DNA from: Vulcanimicrobiota bacterium
Lineage (GTDB): Bacteria; Vulcanimicrobiota; Vulcanimicrobiia; Vulcanimicrobiales; Vulcanimicrobiaceae
DNA length: 64,000 bases
Assembly: GCA_027307235.1 (NCBI GenBank)
Contig: DAHUXH010000008.1
Coordinates: 62,001 to 126,000, forward strand
Reading direction: 5' to 3'
In this document: positions 4,586-64,000 of the stretch, piece after piece
How positions within the stretch are numbered: position 1 is the first letter of the stretch
Layout: each line of letters starts with the position of its first letter
Translations under genes and position numbers: made by a program
Notes under the pieces: generated by a model
Seen by the model: the letters and a program-made list of their open reading frames with translations, nothing else
Database searches by the model: none
Told to the model about the DNA's origin: nothing

Positions 4586-5749
4586 ATGGCTATGGCTATC
4601 GACCAACACGCAACGTCCGAAGAGGAAGCGATGATGCTCGCCGTCGTGCGCGACCTCGTTTCCGAAAAAGTCGCACCGCGCGCCGCCGAGATCGACGAGA
4701 GCGGCGAGTTTCCGTGGGACCTTAAGGAGCTATTTGCGCAGAACGACCTGCTCGGCATCCCGATTCCCGAGGAGTACGGTGGGCTCGGCGGCAGTTTCGT
4801 GACCTATGTGAAGGTGGTCGAGGAGATCGCCAAGGCATGCGCCTCGAGTTCGCTGATCGTCGCCGTTCAAGAACTCGGCATGCTGCCGATCCTTATCGGC
4901 GGCAATGACGAACAGAAGAAACGCCTCCTTCCTACCATCGCCTCCGGTAAAAAGATCGCCGCGTACGCGCTCACCGAGGTGTCGAGCGGCTCCGATGCGC
5001 TCGGCTCGATGCGAACGCGCGCCGAGAAGCAGGGCGAGAACTACGTCCTCAACGGGCAGAAGATTTGGATTACCAACGGAAGCGTGGCCGACGTCGTCTG
5101 CGTCTTCGCGGTGACCGACCCGTCGGCCGGATCGCGCGGCGTGAGCGCGTTCGTCGTCGAAAAGGGCATGCCGGGCTTCATCGTCGGTAAGAAAGAGAAA
5201 AAGATGGGCATTCGCGGGTCACCGACGGTCGAGCTCGTCTTCGACAACTGCGTGGTTCCGGCCAAGAATCGCCTCGGTGAGGAGGGCGAAGGCTTCAAGA
5301 TCGCCATGAAGGTGCTGGACAAATCGCGCCCCGGCATCGCCGCCCAAGCGCTGGGCATCGCGGCCGGTGCGCTCGAGTACGCGACCAACTACGCCAAGGA
5401 GCGCGAGGCCTTCGGCAAGCCGATCGGTCAGCATCAGGGCGTCGGGTTCATGCTCGCCGACATGAAGACCGAGGTCGAGGCCGCTCGCCTTCTGCTATAC
5501 GAGGCAGCCCGCAAATGCGACACGGGTGCGCCCGACGTCTCGCTTTGGGCGTCGATGGCCAAACTGAAGTGCGGCGACGTCGCCATGTCGGTGACGACCG
5601 ATGCGGTTCAGGTCCTCGGCGGCTTCGGCTATTCGGCCGAGTACCCGGTCGAGCGGATGATGCGCGACGCCAAGATCACGCAGATCTATGAAGGCACCCA
5701 GCAGATTCAGCGCCTGGTCATCGCGCGAGCGATGGTCGGCAAGAGGTAG
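4586..5749 (+). CDS. acyl-CoA dehydrogenase
   Basis: A 387-residue flavoprotein that introduces the alpha-beta double bond into an acyl-CoA, passing electrons to ETF. ATG 4586 is chosen because of the upstream CAGGAGTAAGG and because residue 1 then matches the usual family length; the open frame begins 29 codons earlier. Family segments: IPIPEEYGGLGG near 58, ALTEVSSGSDA near 132, ITNGSVADV near 160, RMMRDAKITQIYEGT near the end. The base is E369 in IYEGTQQIQR, the position used by short/medium-chain (and glutaryl- or butyryl-) dehydrogenases. Divergent from scoAB. Exact chain length is not readable. Confidence 0.95.
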   Translation: MAMAIDQHATSEEEAMMLAVVRDLVSEKVAPRAAEIDESGEFPWDLKELFAQNDLLGIPIPEEYGGLGGSFVTYVKVVEEIAKACASSSLIVAVQELGMLPILIGGNDEQKKRLLPTIASGKKIAAYALTEVSSGSDALGSMRTRAEKQGENYVLNGQKIWITNGSVADVVCVFAVTDPSAGSRGVSAFVVEKGMPGFIVGKKEKKMGIRGSPTVELVFDNCVVPAKNRLGEEGEGFKIAMKVLDKSRPGIAAQALGIAAGALEYATNYAKEREAFGKPIGQHQGVGFMLADMKTEVEAARLLLYEAARKCDTGAPDVSLWASMAKLKCGDVAMSVTTDAVQVLGGFGYSAEYPVERMMRDAKITQIYEGTQQIQRLVIARAMVGKR

Positions 5750-5773
5750 GGGCACCTCCCGGTCGAACCTTTC

Positions 5774-5809
5774 GGGCGTTGCGCTTCGTTGATTCGAAGT
5801 GCGGCGCCC
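5774..5809 (+). terminator. probable terminator hairpin after acyl-CoA dehydrogenase
   Basis: A 15-bp stem (5774-5788 with 5795-5809) around a six-base loop TTGATT, containing three G.T pairs on the + strand and no mismatch. It starts 24 bases after the stop at 5749. The following bases TTCATGTTTC are only weakly T-rich, so termination strength is uncertain. Confidence 0.6.
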
Positions 5810-5893
5810 TTCATGTTTCGGGAGCAGGCGGGCGTGCGTGCCGGTGCGAGAAGCACCGGGTTTTCACCATGGGTTGAAAGGGGGGAAATACAT

Positions 5894-6100
5894 ATGAAAA
5901 AGATGATCGCATCGTTCGCTGCCGCCGCGTTTCTGTTGACCGGCACGGCGATGGCCGCAGCTCCGGCGTCGCCGAAGCCCGCCGCCAAGACCACCACGAT
6001 GAAGTCGCACTCGATGATGAAGTCGGGCTCGATGATGAAGTCGCACTCGATGATGAAGTCGACGAAGAAACCGGCTGCCAAGCCCAGCTCGAAGCCGTAG
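5894..6100 (+). CDS. small secreted Met/Lys/Ser repeat protein
   Basis: A 68-residue protein. Start ATG 5894 is chosen because a purine-rich AAGGGGGGAAAT precedes it and a signal peptide then begins at residue 1 (KKMIASFAAAAFLLTGTAMA, cleavage about residue 20-22). The mature part is Ala/Pro/Lys rich and carries a six-residue repeat MKSHSM / MKSGSM / MKSHSM encoded by three 18-bp DNA repeats (5999-6052). Tandem Met/Lys motifs of this kind occur in small periplasmic proteins of unknown role; Met and His could bind copper, but nothing here proves it. It has its own hairpin terminator at 6142, so it is probably a monocistronic, abundant transcript. Confidence 0.8.
   Translation: MKKMIASFAAAAFLLTGTAMAAAPASPKPAAKTTTMKSHSMMKSGSMMKSHSMMKSTKKPAAKPSSKP
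5999..6052 (+). repeat. three tandem 18-bp coding repeats
   Basis: Three successive units of the form ATGAAGTCG(C/G)(A/G)CTCGATG at 5999-6016, 6017-6034 and 6035-6052, followed by a fourth partial unit. They encode the MKSxSM repeat and are near-identical at the DNA level, so they can slip and change copy number. Confidence 0.9.
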
Positions 6101-10884: not shown

Positions 10885-12903
10885 CTACTTCAGGTAGCGA
10901 GCGATCCACTCGATCCAACGCCGATCGACGTCGAATGCGCGCACGGGATCGCCCGGAAAGTGCCCGCCGACCGGATACGCCCAAAATTCCACCGGCGTTC
11001 CGCGATCTTTGAGCGCATGATACATCTCATACGACTGCGGGATCGGCACGCGCTGATCGCCGACATCGCTCAAGATGAGCGTGGGGGTCGTGATATTCCA
11101 CGCGTACGTGATCGGCGATTGATCGATATAGGCTTGCAGCAGGTGCTTCGTCCACGGCGAGCCGCCCATGTTGTAGCGCCATCCGACGCCGTTGTCGCCA
11201 AGCGCATATTCGTCGACTAGATCGTTGACCGCCGCACCCGTGACCGCCGTCTTCCAGATGTGGTAGTGGCCGATCATCCACGACGTCATGTATCCGCCGT
11301 ACGACCAGCCCGAGACCGCAATGCGCGAGGTGTCGATCGGATAGGCTTTCTCGACCGCCGCGATACCGGCCATCACGTCACGGCCAGGCCCCGCGCCCGA
11401 ATCGGTGACGATCGCGTGCCAGTATTTTTCGCCCAAGTTGTCGCTGCCGCGATAGTTCGGGTTGAACACGATGTAGCCGCGCGCCGCCAGTAGTTGATTC
11501 AAACTCGAAAACGACGTGATCGACGCCGAGTTCGGGCCGCCGTGGATGACGAGGACCAGCGGGTAGCGTTTGTTCGAATCGTAGTTGGGCGGCAGCGTCA
11601 CCGTACCGTCTTCATCGAAGCCTTCGAGCGTCCACGCGATCGGTTTGACCGCGCCGAGGTCGAGTTTCGCGATCGAGTCGTTGTACGACGTCAGGCGTTT
11701 GGGAACGGCAGACGCGGAGGAAAGGTAGTAGAGTTCGGTCGGATGATTCGGCTCGCTCGCCGTGAACGCGATCGCGCCGGTCTTGCTGATCGACGCATCG
11801 AGCCAGAACGACTGCACGGGTTGCACGTCGCCGAGATCGAGCCGCTTGACCGCACCGCCGAGGGTCTTGATCCAGAGCGCCGCATCGGTGCCTTTGTGTC
11901 CGGAGATCAACAGCGACTGCCCGTCGGGCATCCACATCGCACGCTGCACGTTGGTGTCGATGTCGCTTGCGGTGACGTCGGTCCCATTCCCGCCGCTCGC
12001 CGGCGCGACGAAGATGTCGTTTTGAGCGGCACCGTCGCCTGCGAACGGATACCAATACAGAACATTCTTTCCGTCAGGCGAAAACTCGCCGAAACCTTCG
12101 AGCCCGCCGTGTGAAGTCAACGTGCGAATCGCGCCGCTCGCGACGTTGAGCACCGCGATGACTGCGTGGTCGGAATCGGCAACGTAGGCGTTGGGCATCT
12201 TGGTGAAGACGATCTCTTTGCCGTCGGGCGACCACGAGATCGGCGCGCCGGGCGAACTCGGCGGCTGTGCGCTCGGCAAACCCCACGCGCCGCTCGTCAA
12301 ACGCTTGGCGTCGCCGCCGTCAGCGGCGACCAGCCACAGATGATTGGGCGTCGGCGCGGCGCGATCGTCGAAGGCTTGATCGCCGACGACGAAGGCATCG
12401 AGGTGGTGCGCGATCTGCTTGGTGTTCGCCGGTTCATCGGGCGCGACAAATGCGATAGCCGCGCCGTCCGGACGCCACGCGAATTGTTGGACGCCCAGCG
12501 GCGCATGCGTGATCGGCGTCGGGTCGCCGCCGTGCATGTCCATCACGAAGAGCTGCTGCCGCGCATCGCTGCCCTCGCCCGCGAGCGCCAAGAACGCAAG
12601 CTTCTTGCCGTCCGGCGACCACGCCGGCGAGGCCAGCGCTTTGCGCGCGTAGGTGAGTGCGCGGTGTGTGCCGGTCGCGAGATCGAGGAGTTCGAGGGTG
12701 CGGTCGCTGCGATCTTCCTTCATGTTCACATGCGACACGATGTAGGCGATCGACGTGCCGTCAGGTGAAATCGTCGCGTCGCTGACGCCGGCGATGGCGG
12801 GCAAGTCGTCGTAGCCGATCGTGCGCGCCGAGGCGTTACCGGCGGCGGCGAGCGCGGCTACGAGCGCGAGTGATGGGATCAGTCGTTTCATCATCGTCGT
12901 CAT
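10885..12903 (-). CDS. secreted S9C-type acylaminoacyl/prolyl oligopeptidase
   Basis: A 672-residue secreted serine peptidase. ATG 12903 is chosen because it overlaps the upstream gene's stop as ATGA and starts the signal peptide MTTMMKRLIPSLALVAAL; the frame is open ten codons further. The propeller (about 25-400) has many SPDGTS/SPDGK blades (TolB/PD40 type). The hydrolase triad is S534 in SGWSYGGYMTSW, D616 in SDVGDQRVP and H648 in GGHFPGDP. It probably cleaves short peptides in the periplasm. It is a tandem paralogue of the next gene; both share the GWSYGGYM and HALKDxGT blocks. Confidence 0.92.
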   Translation of the reverse strand: MTTMMKRLIPSLALVAALAAAGNASARTIGYDDLPAIAGVSDATISPDGTSIAYIVSHVNMKEDRSDRTLELLDLATGTHRALTYARKALASPAWSPDGKKLAFLALAGEGSDARQQLFVMDMHGGDPTPITHAPLGVQQFAWRPDGAAIAFVAPDEPANTKQIAHHLDAFVVGDQAFDDRAAPTPNHLWLVAADGGDAKRLTSGAWGLPSAQPPSSPGAPISWSPDGKEIVFTKMPNAYVADSDHAVIAVLNVASGAIRTLTSHGGLEGFGEFSPDGKNVLYWYPFAGDGAAQNDIFVAPASGGNGTDVTASDIDTNVQRAMWMPDGQSLLISGHKGTDAALWIKTLGGAVKRLDLGDVQPVQSFWLDASISKTGAIAFTASEPNHPTELYYLSSASAVPKRLTSYNDSIAKLDLGAVKPIAWTLEGFDEDGTVTLPPNYDSNKRYPLVLVIHGGPNSASITSFSSLNQLLAARGYIVFNPNYRGSDNLGEKYWHAIVTDSGAGPGRDVMAGIAAVEKAYPIDTSRIAVSGWSYGGYMTSWMIGHYHIWKTAVTGAAVNDLVDEYALGDNGVGWRYNMGGSPWTKHLLQAYIDQSPITYAWNITTPTLILSDVGDQRVPIPQSYEMYHALKDRGTPVEFWAYPVGGHFPGDPVRAFDVDRRWIEWIARYLK

Positions 12904-14891
12904 CCTCGTACCTTCAGATAGCGGTCGAGCCAACCGAGCCAGCGCCGCGTGACGTCCTCGGAGCGAACCGGATCGGACGGAAAGTGGCCGGCAACCGGAT
13001 AGGCCACGAATTGCACGGCCGTCCCGTTGTCTTTGAGAGCGTGATAGAGCTTGAACGAGTTGGTGATCGGTACGTTGTTGTCGCCGATGTCACCCATGAT
13101 CAGCGTCGGCGTCGTGACCTGTGAAGCATATGCGATCGGCGACTGCGAACGCCACATCGCGGTGTACTTCGGATTCCACGGCACGCCGCCGAAGAACGGC
13201 ACGTCGGTGTACACGTAGAACGCGATATCGAAATCGTCGAACCAGTCGTCGAGCGACGCGCCGCTGACCGCCGCCTTCCACACGTGGTAGTTGCCGATCA
13301 GCCACGACGTCATGTATCCGCCGTACGACCAGCCCGACACGCCGATCCGCGACTCGTCGACGATGCCCATGCGTTCGACCGCCGCGAGCCCGGCCATCAC
13401 GTCTTTGCCGGGGCCGTCGCCGGCGTCGCGAGCGATGGCGTGCTGATACGAATCGCCAAGGTTGGTGCTGCCGCGATAGTTCGGCTCGAAGACGAGATAG
13501 CCGTGGGATGCGAAGATCTGCCGCTGCGTGCTCCACGCGATCGACGACGCTGATTGCGGTCCGCCGTGAATCAGCAGAATCAACGGCGTCTTGCCGCCTT
13601 TCCATCCCGGCGGGTATGTCAGCACGCCGTCTTCATGAAATCGACCTTTTGTCGCCGTCCAATCGACGCCGGCGCTGCGAGCGATCGGCACGTTCCGCAC
13701 AAACGCATTCTCAGCGGTGAGCGCCACCGGCCTCGATGCCGCCGAATTGAGGACATACACCTCGGCGGGATGCGAAGGCGTCGTCGCGACGAAGACGATC
13801 GTGCCGTTGCGCGCCGCATTGCCCAGCCGCGAGACCTGCACGTCGCCCGTGTCGATGCGCCGCGCACGACCGGCGACCGGAGCGTACCACAGGCCGATGT
13901 TCGTACCGTCGTGCGCGGTCATCCACACCGCGTCGCCCGCTGCATTCCACGCGTAGTCACCGACATTGCGATCGACGCCGGCGCGCACGTCGCGGCCGTC
14001 GCCGCCGCCGGGATGTGTGACGAAGAGTGCTATGCCGTTGGCGTAGTCGCCGTGCGTGTTGCGATTGTAGACGAGGGCATCGCCGTGCGGCGCGAACTGC
14101 GGACCATTCTGCAGGCCGCGCGATGTCGTCAACTGACGCATGCGGCCCGAAGCGACGTCGATCAATTCGATCGTCGACGTCAGCGAATCGCCGACGAACG
14201 GCGTCGGAAACCAGGTGATCGCAAGTGTTCTGCCGTCGGCCGACCATGACAGATCGCCGCCGCCGTCGGGCGAGACGTCGGCGATGCTCCACGCCCCCGA
14301 CGTCAAGCGGCGCGCATGCAAGCCGTCGGCACCGACGATCCACGCATGCACGGGCGGCGTCGCGGCACGGTGGAGATAGTCGTTGTCATGAACCTGGAAA
14401 GCGTCGCGGTGCGCGTCGACATCCTTCTGATCGGGAGCGTCGTCTGGCATCGCATAGGCGAAACGCGATCCGTCGGGGCTCCACGAGTAGTTGAAGACGC
14501 CGTTCTTCGCATGCGTCACCTGGCGCGCTTCGCCGCCGTCCATCGGCAGCACGAATATCTGCGACTGCGGATTCTTCTCGTCGGCGTCGTCGGCGAGAAA
14601 CGCAAGCGACGTGCCATCCGGCGACCAGCGCGGCATCGCGACGCCCTTGCGATCGTAGGTCAGCGCGCGCGAGCGACGGGTGCGCAGATCGACGAGCATG
14701 ATCTGCCGGAGCGTTCGGTCCTTTTCGTAGTCGGCCACCCCGCGAACGTAGACCGCGCGCGTGCCGTCCGGCGAAATTTGCGCATCGCCGATGCTCACCA
14801 CGCGGCGAGCGTCGGAGAAATCGAACGCGCGCGCCGGAGTTGCGGCACACACCGAAAAGGCGATCACCGCGAGTGTCAAGACGATCCGCAT
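12900..14891 (-). CDS. secreted S9C-type acylaminoacyl/prolyl oligopeptidase (paralogue)
   Basis: A 663-residue secreted peptidase with signal peptide MRIVLTLAVIAFSVCAATPARA, a PD40 beta-propeller (ISPDGTR, WSPDGTS, WSPDGSR, VSPDGGG blades) and a C-terminal alpha/beta hydrolase with S522 in GWSYGGYMT, D604 in GDIGDNNVP and H636 in AGHFPSDP. It is first in a coupled two-gene unit: its TGA overlaps the next ATG (ATGA at 12900-12903). The two copies probably arose by duplication and may differ in peptide preference: this one carries a FYVYTDVPFF insertion-like aromatic segment near the active site that the paralogue lacks. Confidence 0.92.
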   Translation of the reverse strand: MRIVLTLAVIAFSVCAATPARAFDFSDARRVVSIGDAQISPDGTRAVYVRGVADYEKDRTLRQIMLVDLRTRRSRALTYDRKGVAMPRWSPDGTSLAFLADDADEKNPQSQIFVLPMDGGEARQVTHAKNGVFNYSWSPDGSRFAYAMPDDAPDQKDVDAHRDAFQVHDNDYLHRAATPPVHAWIVGADGLHARRLTSGAWSIADVSPDGGGDLSWSADGRTLAITWFPTPFVGDSLTSTIELIDVASGRMRQLTTSRGLQNGPQFAPHGDALVYNRNTHGDYANGIALFVTHPGGGDGRDVRAGVDRNVGDYAWNAAGDAVWMTAHDGTNIGLWYAPVAGRARRIDTGDVQVSRLGNAARNGTIVFVATTPSHPAEVYVLNSAASRPVALTAENAFVRNVPIARSAGVDWTATKGRFHEDGVLTYPPGWKGGKTPLILLIHGGPQSASSIAWSTQRQIFASHGYLVFEPNYRGSTNLGDSYQHAIARDAGDGPGKDVMAGLAAVERMGIVDESRIGVSGWSYGGYMTSWLIGNYHVWKAAVSGASLDDWFDDFDIAFYVYTDVPFFGGVPWNPKYTAMWRSQSPIAYASQVTTPTLIMGDIGDNNVPITNSFKLYHALKDNGTAVQFVAYPVAGHFPSDPVRSEDVTRRWLGWLDRYLKVRG

Positions 14892-26667: not shown

Positions 26668-28257
26668 GTGACGAAAATGAAGTTTGAACAGATATCCAAG
26701 GCGTTCGCCTTCGTTGCCGCCGCTTCGCTTGCGGCATGCGGCGGTGGCGGCGGCGCGACGCCGCCTCCCGCTCCGGCGCCTCAAACGGGTGCGAACGTGC
26801 TCACCACGATCGTCGGCATCGGCGACAGCCTGACGGCCGGCTTCCAATCCGACGGCTTCCTCGGCGCACCGGTGGGATCGATTCCTAACCCGCTGGCCGC
26901 CGGAACACCGGCCGCAGCGCTCGGCGTCCCGCCAGGTCAAGAGAGCGGATTCTGGTCGCAGCTCTACATGGCGGCCAAGGGCGCGAACTACGGGACGATG
27001 GCAAATCAATCGACCTCGCCGCTGCCGCTCATCGCCGCACCAGGACTCGGCAATCAGATCGTTCCCGCCAATCCGGCGGTCGTGGGAACGCCGTTCGGCC
27101 AACTCCCCACGCGCAGCAACTGCGATACGTTCAACGCCGCCGCCTACGCGCTCAATCAGCTGACGACGGTTCGCGAGAATCCCAAAGGCACGGTGCTCGA
27201 CCTCGCCGTCCCCGGCATCACCTTGCACGAAGCCCTCACGCTCACGCAGCCGCCGGTGCCGACCTGTAACGCCCAAGCCTTGGCCGGCGCGCCGCTCGGT
27301 ATGCTGGCTCCGCTTCTGAGCGAGAGCGGAAACTTCTATCCAGTACTCGGCGGGTTCGGACCGAACGCGACGATGCTGAGTGCGGCTACCTCGCTGCATC
27401 CGACGCTGACCACGGTGTGGCTCGGCGCCAACGACCTGCTCCACTACGCGTTGAGCGGCGGGGCCTTCACCGGTTCGGACGGTTTGGGCAACAACGTCGG
27501 TCAAGTGCAGCAGGACATGGTCTCGATCATCAGCACGCTGCAGAAGGCCGGCTCGCAGGTCGTGGTCGCAAATCTGCCCGACATCTTGCAGACGCCGTTC
27601 TTCGCTCAAGTGGCGGGACCGCCGTCGCCGGCAGCCTGCTCAGTGCAGACGTTCTTGGTCTGTGAACTCTCCCAGTTCCCGGCCCCCATCGGAACCAACG
27701 CTGCCGCCATCGACGCGGCGATCGCCGCGCTTCCCAACGGTCCCGGCGCCAACGGCATCGTCACCGAAGCGGGCTTGCTGACCATCATCGGCGAGTTGAC
27801 GAAGGGCGTTCCGATCAACCAGCTCACCCTCGATCCGGCTGGTCCCGGCAGCGGTCTCGGGCAGAACTACCTTACGCAAACGTTTGCCGCGAGCGTGCAG
27901 CAGCTCAACGACACGCTCAACACAGGCATCGCCAACGCCGCTTCGCAAACAAAGGTCCCGCTCGTCGACGTTCACACGATCTTCGCGGGCCTGGCCAGCG
28001 GCAATTTCAGCAACCAGTTCTTCGCCCAAGCGGCCAGCATCAATCCGGGCAAGTGCTGCACGCTCGCGTTCGGCGGCGGTCTGGTCAGCTTCGACGGGCT
28101 TCACCCCTCGAACACCGGCTACGCGTTCATCGCCAGCGCCTTCGTCCAAACCATCAACACCGCGTTCGGCAACCCGATCGCCGGAACGGTCAACCCCGCC
28201 AGCGAGTACAACGGTGTGGGCGCGATTCCATTCCCCGACCCATACGCCCAGCATTAG
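26668..28257 (+). CDS. SGNH/GDSL hydrolase, lipoprotein
   Basis: A 529-residue lipid-anchored hydrolase. Signal with lipobox SLAAC (C24), then a Gly and Pro linker (GGGGGATPPPAPAPQ). SGNH blocks: nucleophile S54 in VGIGDSLTAG, block III N255 in WLGANDLL, and block V D476/H479 in SFDGLHPSN. The ~220 residues between are longer than in minimal SGNH enzymes and contain many Gly/Pro/Asn turns. Likely an outer-membrane or periplasmic esterase, substrate unknown. GTG 26668 or ATG 26677 could be the start. Its TAG stop lies inside the arm of palindromic element 1. Confidence 0.9.
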   Translation: MTKMKFEQISKAFAFVAAASLAACGGGGGATPPPAPAPQTGANVLTTIVGIGDSLTAGFQSDGFLGAPVGSIPNPLAAGTPAAALGVPPGQESGFWSQLYMAAKGANYGTMANQSTSPLPLIAAPGLGNQIVPANPAVVGTPFGQLPTRSNCDTFNAAAYALNQLTTVRENPKGTVLDLAVPGITLHEALTLTQPPVPTCNAQALAGAPLGMLAPLLSESGNFYPVLGGFGPNATMLSAATSLHPTLTTVWLGANDLLHYALSGGAFTGSDGLGNNVGQVQQDMVSIISTLQKAGSQVVVANLPDILQTPFFAQVAGPPSPAACSVQTFLVCELSQFPAPIGTNAAAIDAAIAALPNGPGANGIVTEAGLLTIIGELTKGVPINQLTLDPAGPGSGLGQNYLTQTFAASVQQLNDTLNTGIANAASQTKVPLVDVHTIFAGLASGNFSNQFFAQAASINPGKCCTLAFGGGLVSFDGLHPSNTGYAFIASAFVQTINTAFGNPIAGTVNPASEYNGVGAIPFPDPYAQH

Positions 28258-28359
28258 GAAATCCTGATTTCCGCCATGCCTTCGTTGCGGAGAGGCTCGT
28301 GTACCGTAGTACACTTCGCCTCTCCGCGCCTCGGCCTGACGAAAATCAGGACTTCCTAA
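28254..28359 (-). repeat. stop-adjacent palindromic element, copy 1
   Basis: A 106-bp palindrome. Its left end TTAGGAA contains the TAG stop of the SGNH gene. Read on the minus strand (the orientation in which the loop is C(TACG)G) it has: copy-specific outer arms of about 12 bp; a shared inner arm GATTTTCGTCAGGCC / GGCATGGCGGAAATC; an internal loop (GAGGC opposite AACGA); a perfect 10-bp stem GCGGAGAGGC / GCCTCTCCGC; a small bulge; and GTGTAC-TACG-GTACAC. In that strand three non-Watson-Crick arm positions are G.T pairs and one is G.A. No coding sense in either strand. The AACGA-bearing arm faces the gene. Confidence 0.95.
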
Positions 28360-28376
28360 GGGGGCTATCGAGATAA

Positions 28377-28408: not shown

Positions 28409-28432
28409 CTTTTCATTCCGTGATCGCTCACC

Positions 28433-28532
28433 GAGAAGTTCTGATTTTCGTCAGGCCGAGGCGCGGAGGGGCGACGTGTTACGGTACACGAGCCGCTCCG
28501 CAACGACGGCATGGCGGAAATCAGGACTTCTC
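28433..28532 (+). repeat. stop-adjacent palindromic element, copy 2
   Basis: A 100-bp copy ending on the first base of the gdhA stop triplet (28532-28534, minus strand). Outer arms GAGAAGTTCT / AGGACTTCTC are specific to this copy and include one G.T pair. The inner arm equals copy 1; the 10-bp stem has one G.G mismatch; the tip is shortened by two bases (GTGTTACGGTACAC). Orientation is the mirror of copy 1, so here too the AACGA-bearing arm faces its gene. Confidence 0.93.
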
Positions 28533-29791
28533 TACGCGTAGATGCCGCGGAGTTTGGATGTGCGCACCACGCGGTCGATGGCGAGTTGGTAGGCGGCGAC
28601 GCGCAGTGTGGTGTTGTGGGTTTTCGCGAGTTTTTGGAGCTGGTGGAGATTTTCGAGCAGGGTTTCTTCCAGGCGCGCGTTGACTTCCGATTCCTTCCAG
28701 AAGTAGCCCATGCGGTCTTGTGCCCACTCGAAGTATGACACGGTCACGCCGCCGGCGTTGGCCATGATGTCGGGAATCACGACGATGCCCTTCTCGTTGA
28801 AAATACGATCGGCTTCGGGGGTCGTCGGACCGTTCGCGCCTTCGACGATCAGCTTCGCCTTGACTTTTGAAGCGTTCTCGACGGTGAAAACCTTTTCGAG
28901 CGCGGCCGGCACGAGGACGTCGCAGTCGCTGGTCAACAGCTCGCTGTTACTGATCTTGTCGCCGCCCTTGAAGCCGTCGAGCGTCCGATTTGCGCCCACG
29001 TATTCGACGGCGTGCGCGATGTCGATGCCCTTGTCATTGTAGTAGGCGCCGGTCACGTCGGAGATGCCGACGACTTTGCAGCCGCGCTCCGCGAACAGTT
29101 TAGCCGCATACATTCCGACGTTGCCGAAGCCTTGCACGACAATCGAGACCTTTTTGGGATCGAGTCCCATCGCAGCCATTTGATCGAGCGCGCAGATCGT
29201 CACGCCGCGCCCGGTCGCTTCAGTGCGGCCACGCGAACCGCCGATCTCGAGCGGCTTACCGGTGACGACGCCCGGCACGTTCTGACGAACGTGCATCGAG
29301 TACGTGTCCATGAACCATGCCATGATCTGCGGAGTCGTGTTGACGTCGGGGGCCGGAACGTCTTTATCCGGTCCGACGACTTCGACGAGTTCGGCCGCGT
29401 AACGGCGCGTGATGCGTTCGAGTTCGTTGGTTGAAAGCTGGCTCGGGTCGCAGGTCACGCCGCCTTTGCCGCCACCGAACGGCAAGTCGACCACCGCGCA
29501 CTTCCAGGTCATCCAGAAAGCGAGCGCCGTGACCTCGTCGAGCGTCACACCGGGATGGTAGCGGATACCGCCTTTGGCCGGGCCGCGTGCGAAGTTGTAC
29601 TGCACGCGATAGCCCGTGTAGACTTCGAAGTCACCGGTGTCGCGTTGGAACGGGATCGAGAAGATGATCTGGCGCGACGGATGCGTCAGGATGCGGCGCA
29701 TGGATGAATCGAGTTCCAGCAAGTCGGCAGCCTGGTTGAAATAGGAGATGCCGTCACCGAAAACCGAGACGTCGCGCGTAGTGGTCGACAT
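28532..29791 (-). CDS. gdhA: glutamate dehydrogenase
   Basis: A 419-residue enzyme of the small hexameric class that interconverts glutamate and 2-oxoglutarate plus ammonium. Substrate lysines lie in PAKGGIRYHP (K73), MTWKCAV (K97) and the catalytic PFGGGKGG (K109); the catalytic Asp is D149 in VPAPDVNT. The nucleotide fold has VQGFGNVG near 220. Residue choice after the second strand (VVGISDVTG) ends in Asp, favouring NAD over NADP. Length and sequence style match the 415-430-residue Glu/Leu/Phe dehydrogenase group. Monocistronic: an upstream hairpin separates it from ychF, and a shared terminator lies beyond element 2. Confidence 0.95.
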   Translation of the reverse strand: MSTTTRDVSVFGDGISYFNQAADLLELDSSMRRILTHPSRQIIFSIPFQRDTGDFEVYTGYRVQYNFARGPAKGGIRYHPGVTLDEVTALAFWMTWKCAVVDLPFGGGKGGVTCDPSQLSTNELERITRRYAAELVEVVGPDKDVPAPDVNTTPQIMAWFMDTYSMHVRQNVPGVVTGKPLEIGGSRGRTEATGRGVTICALDQMAAMGLDPKKVSIVVQGFGNVGMYAAKLFAERGCKVVGISDVTGAYYNDKGIDIAHAVEYVGANRTLDGFKGGDKISNSELLTSDCDVLVPAALEKVFTVENASKVKAKLIVEGANGPTTPEADRIFNEKGIVVIPDIMANAGGVTVSYFEWAQDRMGYFWKESEVNARLEETLLENLHQLQKLAKTHNTTLRVAAYQLAIDRVVRTSKLRGIYA

Positions 29792-34737: not shown

Positions 34738-35427
34738 ATGACTTTCGGCGGCTCACTCCTCGGCGATGTCATCGAGTGGTTCCTCACGCGCGTGGGGGAT
34801 CGACGCCAGTACAAGCGCAGAGCCGGCGCCTTCCACATGTGGTGGCTCCCGGAAAACCAGGCGCCGGTGCAGGGCATCGGCATGGAACTCTCGCCCAACG
34901 GGATCGTCTTCATCATCAAAGCCGGCATTCAGGCGCCCGAGTTCAACATCCGCATGCGCATACGCGAGCAGATGCTGCCAGCCCGCGTCAAGCGCGTCCG
35001 GTACGACGTCATGGACTATAAAGGCGAGAAGTTCAACCGCTACGTGTGCGAGCTTCAGGGCATCGCCGCCGACCATTGGGATGCGATCGTCCGTTACGTC
35101 AACGACACACCCGAGCCGATCGACCGTCGCAAACAGCAGAACCAAGAGATGTCCAACCGCGTCGACGACGCTTATCGTCTGCTGCCGATGGCGATCCAGC
35201 AGAAGCTCATCGACCTGCTCGTCGGCCAGCGCAAGCTCGAAGCGCCCGCACCCGGCCAGACGCCCTTGATCAAGCTTTTTTACGGAGGGCTCGTGAACGT
35301 TCCGGGCAAGGGCAAAGCGCACCGCGTCAACGTCCACAGCCGCATCAAGGTCAACGACGACATGATGGCCTACGACTCACGCTTTTTGGTGACAGAACCC
35401 GGCGGCGAAATCATCCAACAATCGTGA
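34738..35427 (+). CDS. PilZ-like domain protein
   Basis: A 229-residue soluble protein. The N-terminal ~100 residues look PilZ-like: RRQYKRR provides an RxxxR pair at about 22-28, followed by a strand and GMELSPNGIVFIIK, which fits the (D/N/E)xSxxG half of the c-di-GMP site. The remainder has MLPARVKRVRYDVMDYKGEKFNRYVCELQGI, a barrel-like strand series, then a helical linker (RRKQQNQEMSNRVDDAYRLL) and a C-terminal segment not recognised. Function as a c-di-GMP receptor is inferred and should be treated as moderate. Its TGA stop is inside the arm of the half copy of the palindromic element. Confidence 0.6.
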   Translation: MTFGGSLLGDVIEWFLTRVGDRRQYKRRAGAFHMWWLPENQAPVQGIGMELSPNGIVFIIKAGIQAPEFNIRMRIREQMLPARVKRVRYDVMDYKGEKFNRYVCELQGIAADHWDAIVRYVNDTPEPIDRRKQQNQEMSNRVDDAYRLLPMAIQQKLIDLLVGQRKLEAPAPGQTPLIKLFYGGLVNVPGKGKAHRVNVHSRIKVNDDMMAYDSRFLVTEPGGEIIQQS

Positions 35428-35475
35428 CGGGGGCTGATTTCCGCCAGGCCGTCGTTGCGAAGAGGCTCGTGTACC
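35424..35475 (-). repeat. half copy of stop-adjacent palindromic element (52-bp tandem duplication)
   Basis: Bases 35424-35475 repeat, with one G/T difference, the left half of copy 3 at 35476-35527, joined head to tail with a period of 52 bp. It contains only the gene-facing arm (GTGACGGGGG, GATTTCCGCCAGGCC, TTCGCAACG complement, stem half) and stops at the tip of the hairpin. The PilZ-like gene stop TGA is at 35425-35427, inside it. Confidence 0.93.
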
Positions 35476-35581
35476 GTGACGGGGGCTGATTTCCGCCAGG
35501 CCTTCGTTGCGAAGAGGCTCGTGTACCGTAGTACACTTCGCCTCTTCGCGCCTCGGCCTGACGAAAATCAGACCCCGTCAC
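35476..35581 (-). repeat. stop-adjacent palindromic element, copy 3
   Basis: A complete 106-bp copy. Outer arms GTGACGGGG / CCCCGTCAC are copy-specific. Minus-strand reading gives the C(TACG)G tip, a perfect 10-bp stem GCGAAGAGGC / GCCTCTTCGC, and an inner arm with two G.T pairs. The stem differs from copies 1 and 6 by a compensating A-T for G-C change. The gene-facing arm is on the left, toward the PilZ-like gene. Confidence 0.94.
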
Positions 35582-35592
35582 TAGATCAAGAT

Positions 35593-35629: not shown

Positions 35630-35648
35630 GGAAGGGGAGAGGCTTGTC

Positions 35649-35748
35649 GGAAGGTTTGATTTTCGTCGGGCCTAGGCGCGGTGAGGCGACGTGTACTGTG
35701 GTACACGAGCCTCTCCGCAACGACGGCCTGGCGAAAATCAAACCTTCC
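35649..35748 (+). repeat. stop-adjacent palindromic element, copy 4
   Basis: A 100-bp copy with perfect outer arms GGAAGGTTT / AAACCTTCC, ending on the first base of the TAG stop triplet (35748-35750, minus strand) of the R3H ATPase gene. Inner arm GATTTTCGTCGGGCC / GGCCTGGCGAAAATC has two G.T pairs; the 10-bp stem has one T.T mismatch; the loop is TGTG instead of TACG. The AACGA-bearing arm faces the gene. Confidence 0.94.
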
Positions 35749-37286
35749 TACTCGGACTTGAAGATTCTTACGCGGCGGTTCGGCTCCAAGCCGGTGCTTC
35801 TTGATTGCACTCGGTATTTTTCGGCGAGTTGGTGTTGTTGACGGCGGACGTACGACGTCTGGGGTGAGAGTTCGATGGCCTTGTTGGTCAACATGACCTG
35901 ATAGATCGCTTCCTCGGTCTCGCGCAACGCAATCTCTTCGTTATCGATGGCGCCGAGGTGAAACACGTCGCGCAACGCAGTTTGAATTTGCGTCGTGGTG
36001 TTGGTCTTGATCGAGTAGATCGGCACGTTGTCGGATGCGATCTGCTTGAGTTTCGGCTGCTGCTTGCGTTCGAGTGTCTTGAGCGTCAGCACGACGTCGG
36101 CTTCGTCCCACGCGCGAGCGATCGTCGCGTGGATGCGCAGGTTGTGGACGGCGCGCTCGATCTTGTTGCGCGAAACGCCGTACGGAAAGATCGAGATCGG
36201 TTTCTCGCCTTCTTCGACCTCATGATGGTCCTCGCCGTACGCCTCGGCGATCTGCGGCATCGATTCCGGAACGGCTTCCTGAACGATCGCCACTTGGCCG
36301 GTCGCGGTGCGCTGGCGAATCTCCGGCTGCGGTTGATAGCCGCGCAGGAGAGCATCGACCACCTCGCCGACGTTCTTGTGAATGGCGAGACGATCGCGGT
36401 CGATGATCTCGACGACCACGTCGAACGTCGGAGGAGCTTTGCGCTCGAGCACGGTCTTGCGCGTGCCGCGGCGGCGCGCTTCCTCGTCGGAAAGTGTGAC
36501 CGCGCTGATGCCGCCGACCAGATCGGAGAGCGTCGGATTCATGAGGAGATTTTCGAGCGTCTGACCGTGCGCGGTCCCGATCAACGTCACGCCGCGTTCG
36601 GCGATCGTGCGCGCAGCCACAGCTTCGGCTTCCGTGCCGATCTCGTCGATCACGATGACCTGCGGCATGTGGTTCTCGACGGCTTCGATCATGACGGCGT
36701 GCTGCAGCGCCGGATCGGCGACTTGCATGCGGCGGGCCGTCCCGATGCCCGGATGCGGAATGTCGCTGTCACCGGCGATTTCGTTCGACGAGTCGACGAT
36801 GACGACGCGCTTGCGCTCCTCGCTCAGAATGCGCGCGCACTCGCGCAGCATCGTCGTCTTACCGACGCCCGGGCGGCCGAGCAGGCAGATTGACTGTCCG
36901 CTGCGCAGCACGTCGAGCACGATGTCGATGGTTCCGTACACGGCGCGGCCCACACGACAGGTCAATCCGACGATCTTGCCGGTGCGATTGCGGATCGCGC
37001 TGATGCGATGCAGTGTTTGTTCGATACCCGCGCGATTGTCCGCGCCGAACGGTGAGATGCGCGAACTGACGTGGGCGATATCTTCGTTGGTGACCGACGT
37101 GTCGCTCAGATAGACAAAATCGTGCTCGAAACGAGCCTCGGGCGGACGCCCGAGATCGAGCACGACCTCAATGATGGATTCGAGATTGGGGAGTCTTACG
37201 AGCGCTTGCCGGATCGGCAGGGGGAAGATATCGAGGAGTTGACTGAGCTCCCAGCCGGGGGCGATGGATTCCGCCTTGACCGCCAA
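35748..37286 (-). CDS. SpoIIIAA/Ycf45-like AAA ATPase with C-terminal R3H domain
   Basis: A 512-residue ATPase. Residues about 130-300 form a SpoIIIAA-like secretion-ATPase fold: Walker A LLGRPGVGKTTML, a VVIVDSSNEIAGDSDIPHPGIG segment, Walker B VIVIDEIG, and a TAHGQTLENLL switch. Residues about 350-440 include a central region with PYGVSRNKIERAVHNL and DEADVVLTLK. The C-terminus holds an R3H single-strand-nucleic-acid domain with RRQQH (RxxxH) and ends GLEPNRRVRIFKSE. This layout matches cyanobacterial/plastid Ycf45 and related proteins, whose role is not established. A nucleic-acid-linked motor is inferred. The N-terminal ~100 residues (SpoIIIAA-like) precede. Confidence 0.88.
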   Translation of the reverse strand: MAVKAESIAPGWELSQLLDIFPLPIRQALVRLPNLESIIEVVLDLGRPPEARFEHDFVYLSDTSVTNEDIAHVSSRISPFGADNRAGIEQTLHRISAIRNRTGKIVGLTCRVGRAVYGTIDIVLDVLRSGQSICLLGRPGVGKTTMLRECARILSEERKRVVIVDSSNEIAGDSDIPHPGIGTARRMQVADPALQHAVMIEAVENHMPQVIVIDEIGTEAEAVAARTIAERGVTLIGTAHGQTLENLLMNPTLSDLVGGISAVTLSDEEARRRGTRKTVLERKAPPTFDVVVEIIDRDRLAIHKNVGEVVDALLRGYQPQPEIRQRTATGQVAIVQEAVPESMPQIAEAYGEDHHEVEEGEKPISIFPYGVSRNKIERAVHNLRIHATIARAWDEADVVLTLKTLERKQQPKLKQIASDNVPIYSIKTNTTTQIQTALRDVFHLGAIDNEEIALRETEEAIYQVMLTNKAIELSPQTSYVRRQQHQLAEKYRVQSRSTGLEPNRRVRIFKSE

Positions 37287-44220: not shown

Positions 44221-44328
44221 GCTAGGAAGCGTTGATTTCCGTCAGGCCGAGGCGCGAAGAGGCGAAGTGTACTACGGTACACGAGCCGCTTCGCAACGAA
44301 GGCCTGGCGGAAATCAACGCTTCCTAGC
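44221..44328 (+). repeat. stop-adjacent palindromic element, copy 5
   Basis: A 108-bp copy with the longest arms: the left 28 bases from GCTAGGAAGCG pair with the right 28 with a single G.T pair. The TAG stop of the HNH gene (44324-44326, minus strand) lies in the right arm. Tip GTGTAC-TACG-GTACAC is intact; the 10-bp stem has one A.G mismatch. This is the only copy between tandem genes: it separates the HNH gene's end from the bioA promoter region. Confidence 0.95.
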
Positions 44329-44851
44329 CGATGCGTTCTTCGATGGAGACGTTGTAGAGGAATAGGAACTTGCCCCACTCGTCGGGGAGCGTGTTGCGCT
44401 TGATCTGAATCCACGGGATGTACTTGGGCTGCTTGGGCTTGCGGCGCAGCGCCATGTTCGCCTCGTCAGGCGTGCGATTGTTCTTGCGGTTGTTGCAGCG
44501 CATACATGCCGCCACCAGGTTTTCCCATGTTGACGGGCCGCCTTTGCTCTTGGGAACGACGTGATCGACCGTCATCAGCTTCTCGCCGTGGAGTCCGCAA
44601 TACTGGCACATGTGATCGTCGCGAATGAGGACGTTCTTCTTGGTCAGCGCGACCTTTTGCATCGGGCGCCGGATGTAGTAGAGCATGCGGATGATCGAGG
44701 GCATGCGCATGGCGAAGGTCTGCGCGCCGATCAGCCGGTCGCGATCGTGCACGATCTCCGCTTTCCCGGCGAAAATCAACTTGACGGCGCGCTGAAAACT
44801 GGTGATGTTGAGCGCCTCGTAGGTGAAGTTCAAGACCAGGACTTCCGTCAC
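44324..44851 (-). CDS. HNH endonuclease-domain protein
   Basis: A 175-residue protein. GTG 44851 is preferred: GGAGG lies nine bases upstream and the family begins with a short strand (VTEVLVLNFTYEALNITSFQRAVKLI). The zinc/HNH core is MCQYCG, TVDHVVPKSKGG, NLVAACMRCNNRKNNR: two CxxC pairs with the HNH catalytic His in DHV. The C-terminal third is basic (RRKPKQPKYIPWIQ). This compact 5-methylcytosine-restriction-like HNH type is very common and mostly uncharacterised; a DNA-repair or restriction role is inferred. Its stop sits in element 5. Confidence 0.9.
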   Translation of the reverse strand: MTEVLVLNFTYEALNITSFQRAVKLIFAGKAEIVHDRDRLIGAQTFAMRMPSIIRMLYYIRRPMQKVALTKKNVLIRDDHMCQYCGLHGEKLMTVDHVVPKSKGGPSTWENLVAACMRCNNRKNNRTPDEANMALRRKPKQPKYIPWIQIKRNTLPDEWGKFLFLYNVSIEERIG

Positions 44852-44915
44852 GGTCGGCGTCCTCCAAGCGTCGTGTGTGCGGTAGCAGCGTCCATTAATG
44901 CACGAAAGCGAGGCA

Positions 44916-45203
44916 TCACGTGCCTCGCTTTCTGACAAAGGTCATGCGGGTTTCGGTTAGCATCTGCGCCATTGCCAACCGTTCATCGGGCCGTAACCTC
45001 TCTTTTACCCTCTCGAAGGCAGCCGACGCGATGTCGATCGCGATCGCCGCGGCCTCGAGGTCCGGCTCGCGGCCTTCCTGATCGGCGAGGTAGGCATGTG
45101 CCGCCAGCGCCATCGTCGCGACGACTTCGCTTGCAAGCGGTTCGATGGTGGGAACCGCCCCTTGCTCGGCAATCGTCTGGCGCGTCGGTGTCTGCGCACT
45201 CAT
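44916..45203 (-). CDS. DUF1844-like small protein
   Basis: A 95-residue helical protein. The segment VVATMALAAHAYLADQEGREPDLEAAAIAIDIASAAFERVK and the ending LRPDERLAMAQMLTETRMTFV follow the DUF1844 pattern (a first helix, a turn with DLEAA, a second helix, then a terminal helix ending RxxFV). No biochemical role is known for that family. It precedes HNH by 64 bases in the same direction and follows pdxT by 13 bases, so it may be read with pdxST. Confidence 0.7.
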   Translation of the reverse strand: MSAQTPTRQTIAEQGAVPTIEPLASEVVATMALAAHAYLADQEGREPDLEAAAIAIDIASAAFERVKERLRPDERLAMAQMLTETRMTFVRKRGT

Positions 45204-61181: not shown

Positions 61182-61229
61182 TCGGCCAAGAGATCGGCCA
61201 AGACATCGGCCAAAGTATCGGCCACCTAC
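61182..61229 (+). repeat. four tandem 12-bp repeats
   Basis: Units beginning TCGGCCAAGAGA at 61182, 61194, 61206 and 61218, the last one diverged after TCGGCCA. Being a multiple of three, the repeat is in frame on the minus strand, reading LAD(V/T/L)LAD. Confidence 0.9.
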
Positions 61230-62496: not shown

Positions 62497-62525
62497 AAGA
62501 GTCCATTGTCTCAAACCATGACGCA

Positions 62526-62630
62526 GGGGAAGCCCTGATGTACGTCAGGCCGAGGCGCGGAGAGGCGAAGTGTACTACGGGTACACGAGCCTCTCCGCAA
62601 CGACGGCCTGGCTTACATCAAGGCTTCCCC
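62526..62630 (+). repeat. stop-adjacent palindromic element, copy 6
   Basis: A 105-bp copy with outer arms GGGGAAGCC / GGCTTCCCC. Inner arms have changed on both sides: GATGTA pairs with TACATC where other copies have GATTTC or GATTTT with GAAATC or GAAAATC. The tip carries an extra G (TACGG). The right arm overlaps the last codons of gcvPB (GGG AAG CCT, Gly-Lys-Pro) and its TGA stop (62618-62620). Confidence 0.94.
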
Positions 62631-64000
62631 GGGTGCCAGCGGAGGTCGGGGTGGCGTGCCGCGCGCGTCTCGTCGACGCGACCGACGACAGTGTTCTTCG
62701 GCGCGTCGAGAATCGATTGCGGATCGGTCTTCGCGGTCGCGACGATCTCGCGCAGCGCCGCGATGAAGACGTCGAGCGTCTCTTTCGATTCCGTCTCGGT
62801 CGGTTCGATCATCAGACATTCAGGCACGATCAGCGGGAAGTACATCGTCGGCGCCATGAAGCCACGATCGAGCAGCGCTTTGGCGATGTCGAGTGCGCGC
62901 ACGCCGGTCTCTTTTTTGAGTTCCTGCGCGGAAGCCACGAACTCGTGGCGACAGATCTCGTCGTACGGCGTCGTCAGCACGTCGCGCACGTTCACGCGAA
63001 TGTAGTTCGCGTTGAGCACGGCAAGCGCAGAGACTTTCTTGAGGCCCTCGGCTCCGTTGGCGTAGATGTACGCGAGCGCGCGCACCGCGTGCGCGAAGTT
63101 CGACCAGAACGAGCGCATCGGACCGATCGATTTCGGGCGGTCGAAGTCGAGGGTGAACGTGAGCCGGTCGCTCGGAGCGGTGCTTGCGTCGCCGTTGGAG
63201 CGTTGCTTGGCGACGACCACCGGTGTCGGCAGGTAGTCGATCAGGTGCGCCGCGACGCCGACCGGACCGTGACCCGCGCCGCCGCCGCCGTGCGGGATCG
63301 TGAACGTCTTGTGCGTGTTGAGATGCATCAGGTCGAAACCCATGTCGCCGGGACGCGCGTTGCCCATCAGCGCGTTGGCGTTGGCTCCGTCGTAATACAT
63401 CAATCCGCCCGCAGCGTGAACGGCCGCCGTGATCTCGTGGACGTGATCTTCAAAGAGACCGAGCGTGTTTGGATTGGTCATCATGCACACGGCCGTATCC
63501 GGGCCGAGCACCTTCTTGATCTCATCGACGCTCACGCGTCCGCGCGCGTCGCTCGGAATCGAGATGACCTTGAATCCGCACATCGCCGCCGACGCGGGAT
63601 TGGTCCCATGCGCGGTGTCCGGAACGATCACTTTGTCGCGGTGGGTCTCGCCGCGATCTTTGAAGTATTTCTTGGCGATGAGCAGCGCCGCGAGTTCGGC
63701 GTGCGCGCCTGCCGACGGATTCAGGCTGAACGCCGCCATGCCGAACAACGATGCAAGCGATCGTTCCAGTTCATACATGACTTGCAGCGCGCCCTGCGAG
63801 AGTTCATCCGGCGCGTACGGATGCAGATCGCGAAAACCCGGAAGGTTCGCCATCGCGTCGTTGATGCGCGGATTGTATTTCATCGTGCAGGAGCCGAGGG
63901 GATAGAAGCCCAGATCAATGCCGAACGTGCGCTGCGACAGGCGTGTGAAGTGACGCACCACATCGAGTTCGCTGTTGTCGGGCAGCGGCAGGTCATCGCG
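62618..64000 (-). CDS. gcvPB: glycine dehydrogenase (decarboxylating) subunit 2 (partial at right edge)
   Basis: The C-terminal 460 residues of GcvPB, open to the last base of the window, so the N-terminus is outside. GcvPB with GcvPA forms the P-protein of the glycine-cleavage system. Marks: GIDLGFYPLGSCTMKYNPRIND, FSLNPSAGAHAELAALLIAKKYF, NPNTLGLFE, YYDGANANALMG, the PLP lysine in HLNTHKTFTIPHGGGGAGHGPVGV, and MYFPLIVPECLMIEPTETE. It ends LRWHPGKP, whereas relatives usually stop shortly after LRW; the last three residues lie in the palindromic element arm. Confidence 0.96.
   Translation of the reverse strand, partial: RDDLPLPDNSELDVVRHFTRLSQRTFGIDLGFYPLGSCTMKYNPRINDAMANLPGFRDLHPYAPDELSQGALQVMYELERSLASLFGMAAFSLNPSAGAHAELAALLIAKKYFKDRGETHRDKVIVPDTAHGTNPASAAMCGFKVISIPSDARGRVSVDEIKKVLGPDTAVCMMTNPNTLGLFEDHVHEITAAVHAAGGLMYYDGANANALMGNARPGDMGFDLMHLNTHKTFTIPHGGGGAGHGPVGVAAHLIDYLPTPVVVAKQRSNGDASTAPSDRLTFTLDFDRPKSIGPMRSFWSNFAHAVRALAYIYANGAEGLKKVSALAVLNANYIRVNVRDVLTTPYDEICRHEFVASAQELKKETGVRALDIAKALLDRGFMAPTMYFPLIVPECLMIEPTETESKETLDVFIAALREIVATAKTDPQSILDAPKNTVVGRVDETRAARHPDLRWHPGKP

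What the first reader, a model, noticed from the sequence alone, without database searches (positions are those of the whole stretch)
35424..35527. 52-bp head-to-tail duplication of exactly one half of the palindrome
Bases 35424-35475 and 35476-35527 are the same arm, with one base different, and the join is at the tip of the hairpin. A duplication with its end at the hairpin centre is what replication slippage or strand switching at a cruciform would leave. It shows the elements are actively rearranging and supports template switching as the source of self-matched outer arms.
Basis: partly seen in the sequence, partly recalled or inferred. Interest (0 to 1): 0.66.

Follow-up and report, generated by a model that had tools for sequence, protein, structure and literature searches.

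The report
Duplicated hairpin arm beside stop codon
One arm of a long DNA hairpin has been copied twice in a row, and the same accident is seen at three other copies of this hairpin, which sits at the ends of about seventy genes in one bacterium and whose two arms are kept matching by what looks like DNA copying from one arm to the other.

Summary
Bases 35424-35475 and 35476-35527 are a direct tandem duplication of the left arm of a ~106-nt imperfect palindrome, one base different, joined inside the apical tetraloop. It is not unique: 4 of 69 examined copies in this genome carry the same left-arm duplication (spacing 52, 52, 53, 52), each with its own outer-arm sequence; no right-arm equivalent was found. 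The extra arm keeps letters found only in left arms, so it was re-copied directly and not folded back from the right arm.

The palindrome is a dispersed element with about 70 full copies in what is probably a Candidatus Eremiobacterota genome. It usually begins at the stop codon of the gene before it. Its outer ten bases match within a copy but not between copies, do not follow core ancestry and show no G-U bias, which favours arm-to-arm copying at the DNA level. At one locus the right arm copies 26 bases of the left side, including the host gene's coding end. Active rearrangement is supported; slippage or strand switching is plausible but not separated from end joining or a recombinase. No Y1/RAYT transposase was found in this genome. 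Function and mover are unknown.

The parts
35424..35475 (+). left arm, first (extra) copy; begins at the TGA stop of the upstream gene, ends at the hairpin tip
35476..35527 (+). left arm, second copy (98% identical to the first); 5' arm of the intact hairpin
35527..35530 (+). apical tetraloop CGTA where the duplication join maps
   Evidence: DNA fold
35531..35581 (+). right arm of the hairpin, single copy
34738..35427 (+). upstream gene (229 aa) whose stop lies in the duplicated arm
35645..35752 (-). second element, opposite orientation, base at the stop of gene 35748-37286 (-)
28253..28360 (+). further copy of the element, base at the TAG stop of gene 26668-28257 (+)
28430..28535 (-). further copy, base at the TAG stop of gene 28532-29791 (-)
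44221..44328 (-). further copy, base at the TAG stop of gene 44324-44938 (-)
62524..62632 (-). further copy, its own TGA ends gene 62618-63961 (-)

Best explanation
The feature is an in-place direct tandem duplication of one arm (base to tip) of a dispersed ~106-nt DNA hairpin element that sits at the 3' ends of genes. Shown: the element, its copy number, its placement at stop codons, the duplication, its recurrence at four loci with locus-specific outer arms, and left-arm identity of the extra copy. Inferred: when the palindrome extrudes or forms a hairpin during replication, synthesis or repair that has reached the tip restarts at the hairpin base, so the left arm is laid down twice. Microhomology at the join is short (3, 1, 0 and 0 nt), so this resembles hairpin-provoked re-copying or end joining more than slippage between pre-existing repeats. 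Separately, the two arms of each copy are kept complementary by copying from one arm to the other (quasipalindrome correction) at the DNA level; that copying can run past the element into the host gene's stop codon and last codons.
For:: four left-arm duplications at model positions 1-3 to 52-55, none of the right arm; the extra arm has left-only loop letters. Each locus shares its private outer arm between both left copies; 145 of 195 left-arm deviations matched on the right; sense wobble 19 against mirror 27 (own), 25 against 33 (relatives); outer-arm identity unrelated to core identity (Spearman 0.0005). L035 right arm is an inverted copy of 26 nt including the end of a TolC-like coding sequence.
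Against: No reads, no strain comparison and no experiment. The strict left-only pattern (4 to 0) is not predicted by simple symmetric slippage, and 4 events are few. The fixed unit (52-53 nt) could equally reflect cutting by a recombinase at the element edge and tip. No consistent relation to GC skew. Matched arms could also be kept by selection acting on both strands.
Confidence: 0.6

Rival explanations
1. The half copies come from the element's own mobilisation: an unknown recombinase cuts at the element edge and at the tip, and aberrant joining leaves left-left-right products.
For: Fixed unit with edges at model positions 1-3 and 52-55 in all four cases; at L035 the paired region reaches 15 nt beyond the usual edge, yet the unit starts at the usual edge; near-invariant internal loops could be a protein site.
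Against: No Y1 transposase in the genome, no target-site duplication, no candidate enzyme identified; both left copies share the private outer arm, as expected of an in-place event.
Confidence: 0.2
2. The arms stay matched because a hairpin is needed (for example a two-way transcription terminator or mRNA end between convergent genes), so selection on structure, not template switching, explains them; the half duplication is an unrelated accident.
For: Placement at stop codons (51 of 58 gene-like upstream frames); many gene-like convergent neighbours (52 of 69); strong covariation; selection on both strands would also give no net wobble bias.
Against: No U-tract after the right arm in the printed copies. 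Arms ten bases long change completely while the core stays about 90% alike and the two do not correlate. The 26-nt match at L035 runs into coding sequence.
Confidence: 0.3
3. The duplication is an assembly artefact.
For: The genome is a draft of 20 contigs and long hairpins are hard to assemble.
Against: Four loci with different outer arms; three of the four pairs differ at one or more bases (54/55, 52/53, 49/52; the fourth 52/52); the unit is short enough for single reads to span.
Confidence: 0.05
4. The element is a REP/RAYT-type palindrome dimer and the extra arm is an extra REP unit.
For: REPs lie close to 3' ends of genes and form head-to-head dimers (PMC3733652, sections 6 and 15 read).
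Against: Neither half folds on its own better than shuffles (z -0.18 and -0.15); no Y1 transposase in this genome; the extra arm carries the private outer arm of its locus.
Confidence: 0.05

Closest known systems
REP elements, REP dimers and REPINs (GTAG- and CGTC-tagged families, incl. RPE-4/RPE-6 of Rickettsia; PMC3733652, sections 6 and 15 and passages read)
   Same: Dispersed palindromes, close to the 3' ends of genes, often supplying or touching the stop codon, in many copies per genome; CGTC families also lack a dedicated transposase.
   Different: REPs are 20-40 bp with 5-13-bp stems and a fixed tag. This is one ~106-nt hairpin with two conserved internal loops, halves that do not fold alone, a sequence-free outer stem of fixed length, and no Y1 transposase in the genome.
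Quasipalindrome template-switch mutations (PMC8794818: outline, abstract and passages read; PMC7202029: search listing only)
   Same: Arms of an imperfect palindrome made to match by copying one arm from the other; new stems can arise in one step.
   Different: That mechanism gives inverted copies. The extra arm at 35424-35475 is a direct copy of the left arm.
Integron attC sites (recalled, no call)
   Same: Imperfect DNA palindromes placed directly after a stop codon, with structure conserved more than sequence.
   Different: In attC the conserved boxes lie near the ends and copies lie in cassette arrays. Here the conserved letters are internal and the copies are scattered singly.

Membership tests
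RAYT-mobilised REP / REPIN | Y1 (IS200/IS605-like) transposase in the genome | tested here: not met
   PF01797: 0 matches in G000; 2 of 21 genomes searched, both in another family of the class
GTAG or CGTC REP (single unit or dimer) | 20-40-bp unit that forms its own short hairpin | tested here: not met
   left half z -0.18, right half z -0.15 against shuffles
GTAG or CGTC REP (single unit or dimer) | conserved terminal GTAG or CGTC tag; for CGTC, stems starting with complementary AT | tested here: not met
   outermost positions are free in sequence; GTAG at the tip varies between copies; by eye, not by a tag search
GTAG or CGTC REP (single unit or dimer) | close to 3' ends of genes | tested here: met
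   51 of 58 gene-like upstream stops within -2 to +14 of the model start
Quasipalindrome template-switch products | arms match within a copy by paired changes | tested here: met
Quasipalindrome template-switch products | extra sequence is an inverted copy of the other arm | tested here: not met
   the extra arm at 35424-35475 is a direct left-arm copy
Known Rfam RNA family | match above the gathering score | tested here: not met
   none over the window; only weak chance hits to animal miRNA models near the element
Intrinsic transcription terminator | transcript 3' ends at the hairpin | not testable with these tools
   no RNA data; no U-tract seen after the right arm in the copies printed
Transposable element (MITE-like) | target-site duplication | tested here: not met
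   best excess 5 of 69 against 1.25 expected among many offsets tried
Transposable element (MITE-like) | presence/absence at orthologous sites | tested here: met
   absent after 8 orthologues of the focal gene and 24 of the L035 gene; gain and loss not separated

The most novel reading that the evidence does not exclude
A mobile DNA hairpin, found in Eremiobacterota and as scattered relatives in Alphaproteobacteria, Holosporaceae, Burkholderiales and Fibrobacter assemblies, that settles at stop codons without a Y1 transposase. Only its core is inherited; its outer arms are written anew at each site by copying the host sequence around the stop codon into the opposite arm. Left-left-right forms are by-products of the same hairpin processing.
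Probability: 0.2. Interest if true: 0.8.

Novelty: new variant of a known kind. Interest (0 to 1): 0.5.

Why it matters
It gives a natural set of about 70 copies of one long hairpin in one genome, in which arm correction and arm duplication can be counted. That makes the question of whether template switching, and not only selection, keeps stems paired directly testable. If the element is mobile, both its mover and its stop-codon targeting are unknown.

Tried and rejected
Fold-back origin of the extra arm: rejected, because it keeps left-arm-only letters. RAYT REP: rejected. Known RNA family: none (the loci gave only tRNAs). Phage or plasmid origin: no match in phages or plasmids, no pattern match in viral contigs. 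Pre-existing terminator hairpins across stop codons as insertion targets: by eye most other gene ends in the window show none (one exception at 44905-44931). Replication direction: no consistent skew at the four duplicated loci. A wide pattern search of Alphaproteobacteria found only the starting genome (1 of 385), so the spread outside Eremiobacterota is thin. Literature: searches gave no description of this element that I recognised; 'not described' rests on these searches of an open-licence library only. Papers: PMC3733652 sections 6 and 15 plus passages; PMC8794818 outline, abstract and passages; PMC12306157 passages; all others search listings only.

Rows dropped: from 71 nhmmer hits, 54 with score 60 or more that span at least 76 model positions were kept. 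L014-L016 were left out because they repeat window copies. Own copies number 69 after adding 15 loci. Only 54 copies of exactly 108 nt entered the arm/core test and the deviation count. In one search, 65 of 69 and 43 of 45 copies passed the 60% pairing filter. The model census scored at most 64 candidates per genome and is a lower bound. The relatives' copies (45) are a choice of the better hits, not all of them.

Full report
Observation. The window holds a 52-bp direct tandem duplication at 35423/4-35526/7 with one difference, 35451 G against 35503 T. The second copy is the left arm of a ~106-nt imperfect palindrome. The stretch 35475-35582 folds as DNA at -41.2 kcal/mol, z -10.2. The join falls at the four-base loop at the tip. 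Either half alone has no fold beyond shuffles.

The element. Searches of the window's own genome (2.41 Mb, 20 contigs) found many copies. Separate patterns for the left and right half gave 75 and 70 hits, of which 67 pair up. Three more full copies (at C20:215070, C3:15735 and C11:3024) fail only one of the two patterns, so there are about 70. Consensus folding of 54 copies gives 39 pairs, 22 with at least one compensated change. Two asymmetric internal loops are nearly invariant. That the window itself is Eremiobacterota is an inference from this.

Placement. In 51 of 54 copies a sense frame of 100 codons or more ends near the left base. With a codon-composition filter, 58 of 69 own copies have a gene-like upstream frame, and 51 of those 58 stops end between -2 and +14 of the model start. 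On the right side only 14 of 52 gene-like convergent stops do so. The stop TGA 35425-35427 lies inside the duplicated arm. In relatives, 28 of 39 copies with an upstream frame have the stop at -2 to +14 (counted from the list).

Recurrence of the half duplication. A scan for direct repeats touching 69 own and 45 relative copies found the left-arm unit at four own loci: window, L023, L029 and L035, with spacing 52, 52, 53 and 52 and identities 54/55, 52/52, 49/52 and 52/53. Each locus has its own outer arm, shared by both left copies, so each event happened in place. No right-arm equivalent was found. Other forms exist: a left piece after the right arm at offset 94 (L040, L081, L119, L121), an 87-bp triplication (L021), a 34-nt base piece (L028) and several right-arm pieces. 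In all, 17 of 69 own and 6 of 45 relative copies have some direct duplication. In the window and in L035 the two left copies differ at the same site, G then T. This site is polymorphic between copies (T 34, G 19, A 1), so a repeated change there is plausible but unproven.

Matched outer arms. Outside the core, bases pair within their own copy at 0.80-0.96 for offsets 1-10 but at only 0.26-0.79 between copies, with a sharp end at 11-12. Of 195 left-arm departures from consensus, 145 have a Watson-Crick partner on the right. Sense wobble (19) is no commoner than its antisense mirror (27) in own copies, and the same holds in relatives (25 against 33). This argues against selection on one RNA strand alone. 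Outer-arm identity does not rise with core identity (Spearman 0.0005, 54 copies; pairs are not independent). Matches that run 4 nt or more past the edge occur in 2 of 69 own copies (L049, L086) and 0 of 44 relatives, against a control rate of about 0.001-0.002. At L035, which that test misses because of its extra arm, the right arm is an inverted copy of 26 nt at the first left arm, 15 nt beyond the usual edge, including the coding end of a TolC-like gene. By eye that protein end is of the kind shared by 24 orthologous loci, none of which has the element after the gene (one, L210, has an element elsewhere). So at L035 the copying most likely ran from left to right.

Mobility. Eight orthologues of the gene before the focal element (48-62% identity) have no element at the stop, while a distant relative of the gene in G010 does (L195). 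At some loci related genes in other genera both carry an element (L117 and L048, L135 and window 28430, L099 and L087, L100 and L049), so retention or repeated gain also occurs. The model finds the element in 27 of 60 genomes, all in two families of one order. No Y1 transposase is present in G000, and no target-site duplication is seen.

Wider spread. An exact pattern of the core with 22 fixed bases hit 19 stretches in the genome collection: 6 Eremiobacterota, 4 Alphaproteobacteria, 4 Holosporaceae, 2 Burkholderiales and 3 Fibrobacter (organism names are the record titles). With the model, 8 of the 13 outside Eremiobacterota score E 0.001 or better, partly by construction. Three of 13 have a long frame ending within 5 bases of the hairpin base (L138, L147, L154). 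A related pattern hit 10 of 148 genomes of the phylum and 1 of 385 of the alphaproteobacterial class, the centre itself.

Judgement. The half duplication is real, recurrent and tied to the geometry of the hairpin. The likeliest cause is re-copying or mis-joining at an extruded hairpin; a recombinase acting at edge and tip is the main rival. The more interesting finding is the element itself: a conserved core, arms that seem set by the site, and stop-codon placement. Placement near 3' ends is known for REPs (PMC3733652, sections 6 and 15 read; PMC12306157, passages read), so the family is filed as a new variant of a known kind.

Noticed in passing
44905-44931: An 11-bp perfect hairpin spans the TGA stop of the frame 44916-45203 (-), a different stop-codon hairpin without the element core.
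   Followed up: no
L021 600-857 (G000 C10:72598-72857): An element body repeated three times at 87-bp spacing, 157 of 159 identical.
   Followed up: partly
11210-11479 and 13234-13503: Two neighbouring genes (10885-12933 and 12900-14891) share stretches 74-81% alike at a 2024-bp spacing, a likely old gene duplication.
   Followed up: no
5998-6061: 18-bp tandem repeat, 3.6 copies, inside frame 5707-6081 (-).
   Followed up: no
61182-61224: 12-bp tandem repeat, 3.6 copies.
   Followed up: no
L177 and L192 (G006): A different ~64-nt hairpin follows the focal gene's orthologue in another genus.
   Followed up: no
L140, L152, L153 (Holosporaceae): The element core there lies inside longer outer palindromes whose arms are alike between copies.
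   Followed up: no
L019 610-649: A lone left half with no right half.
   Followed up: no
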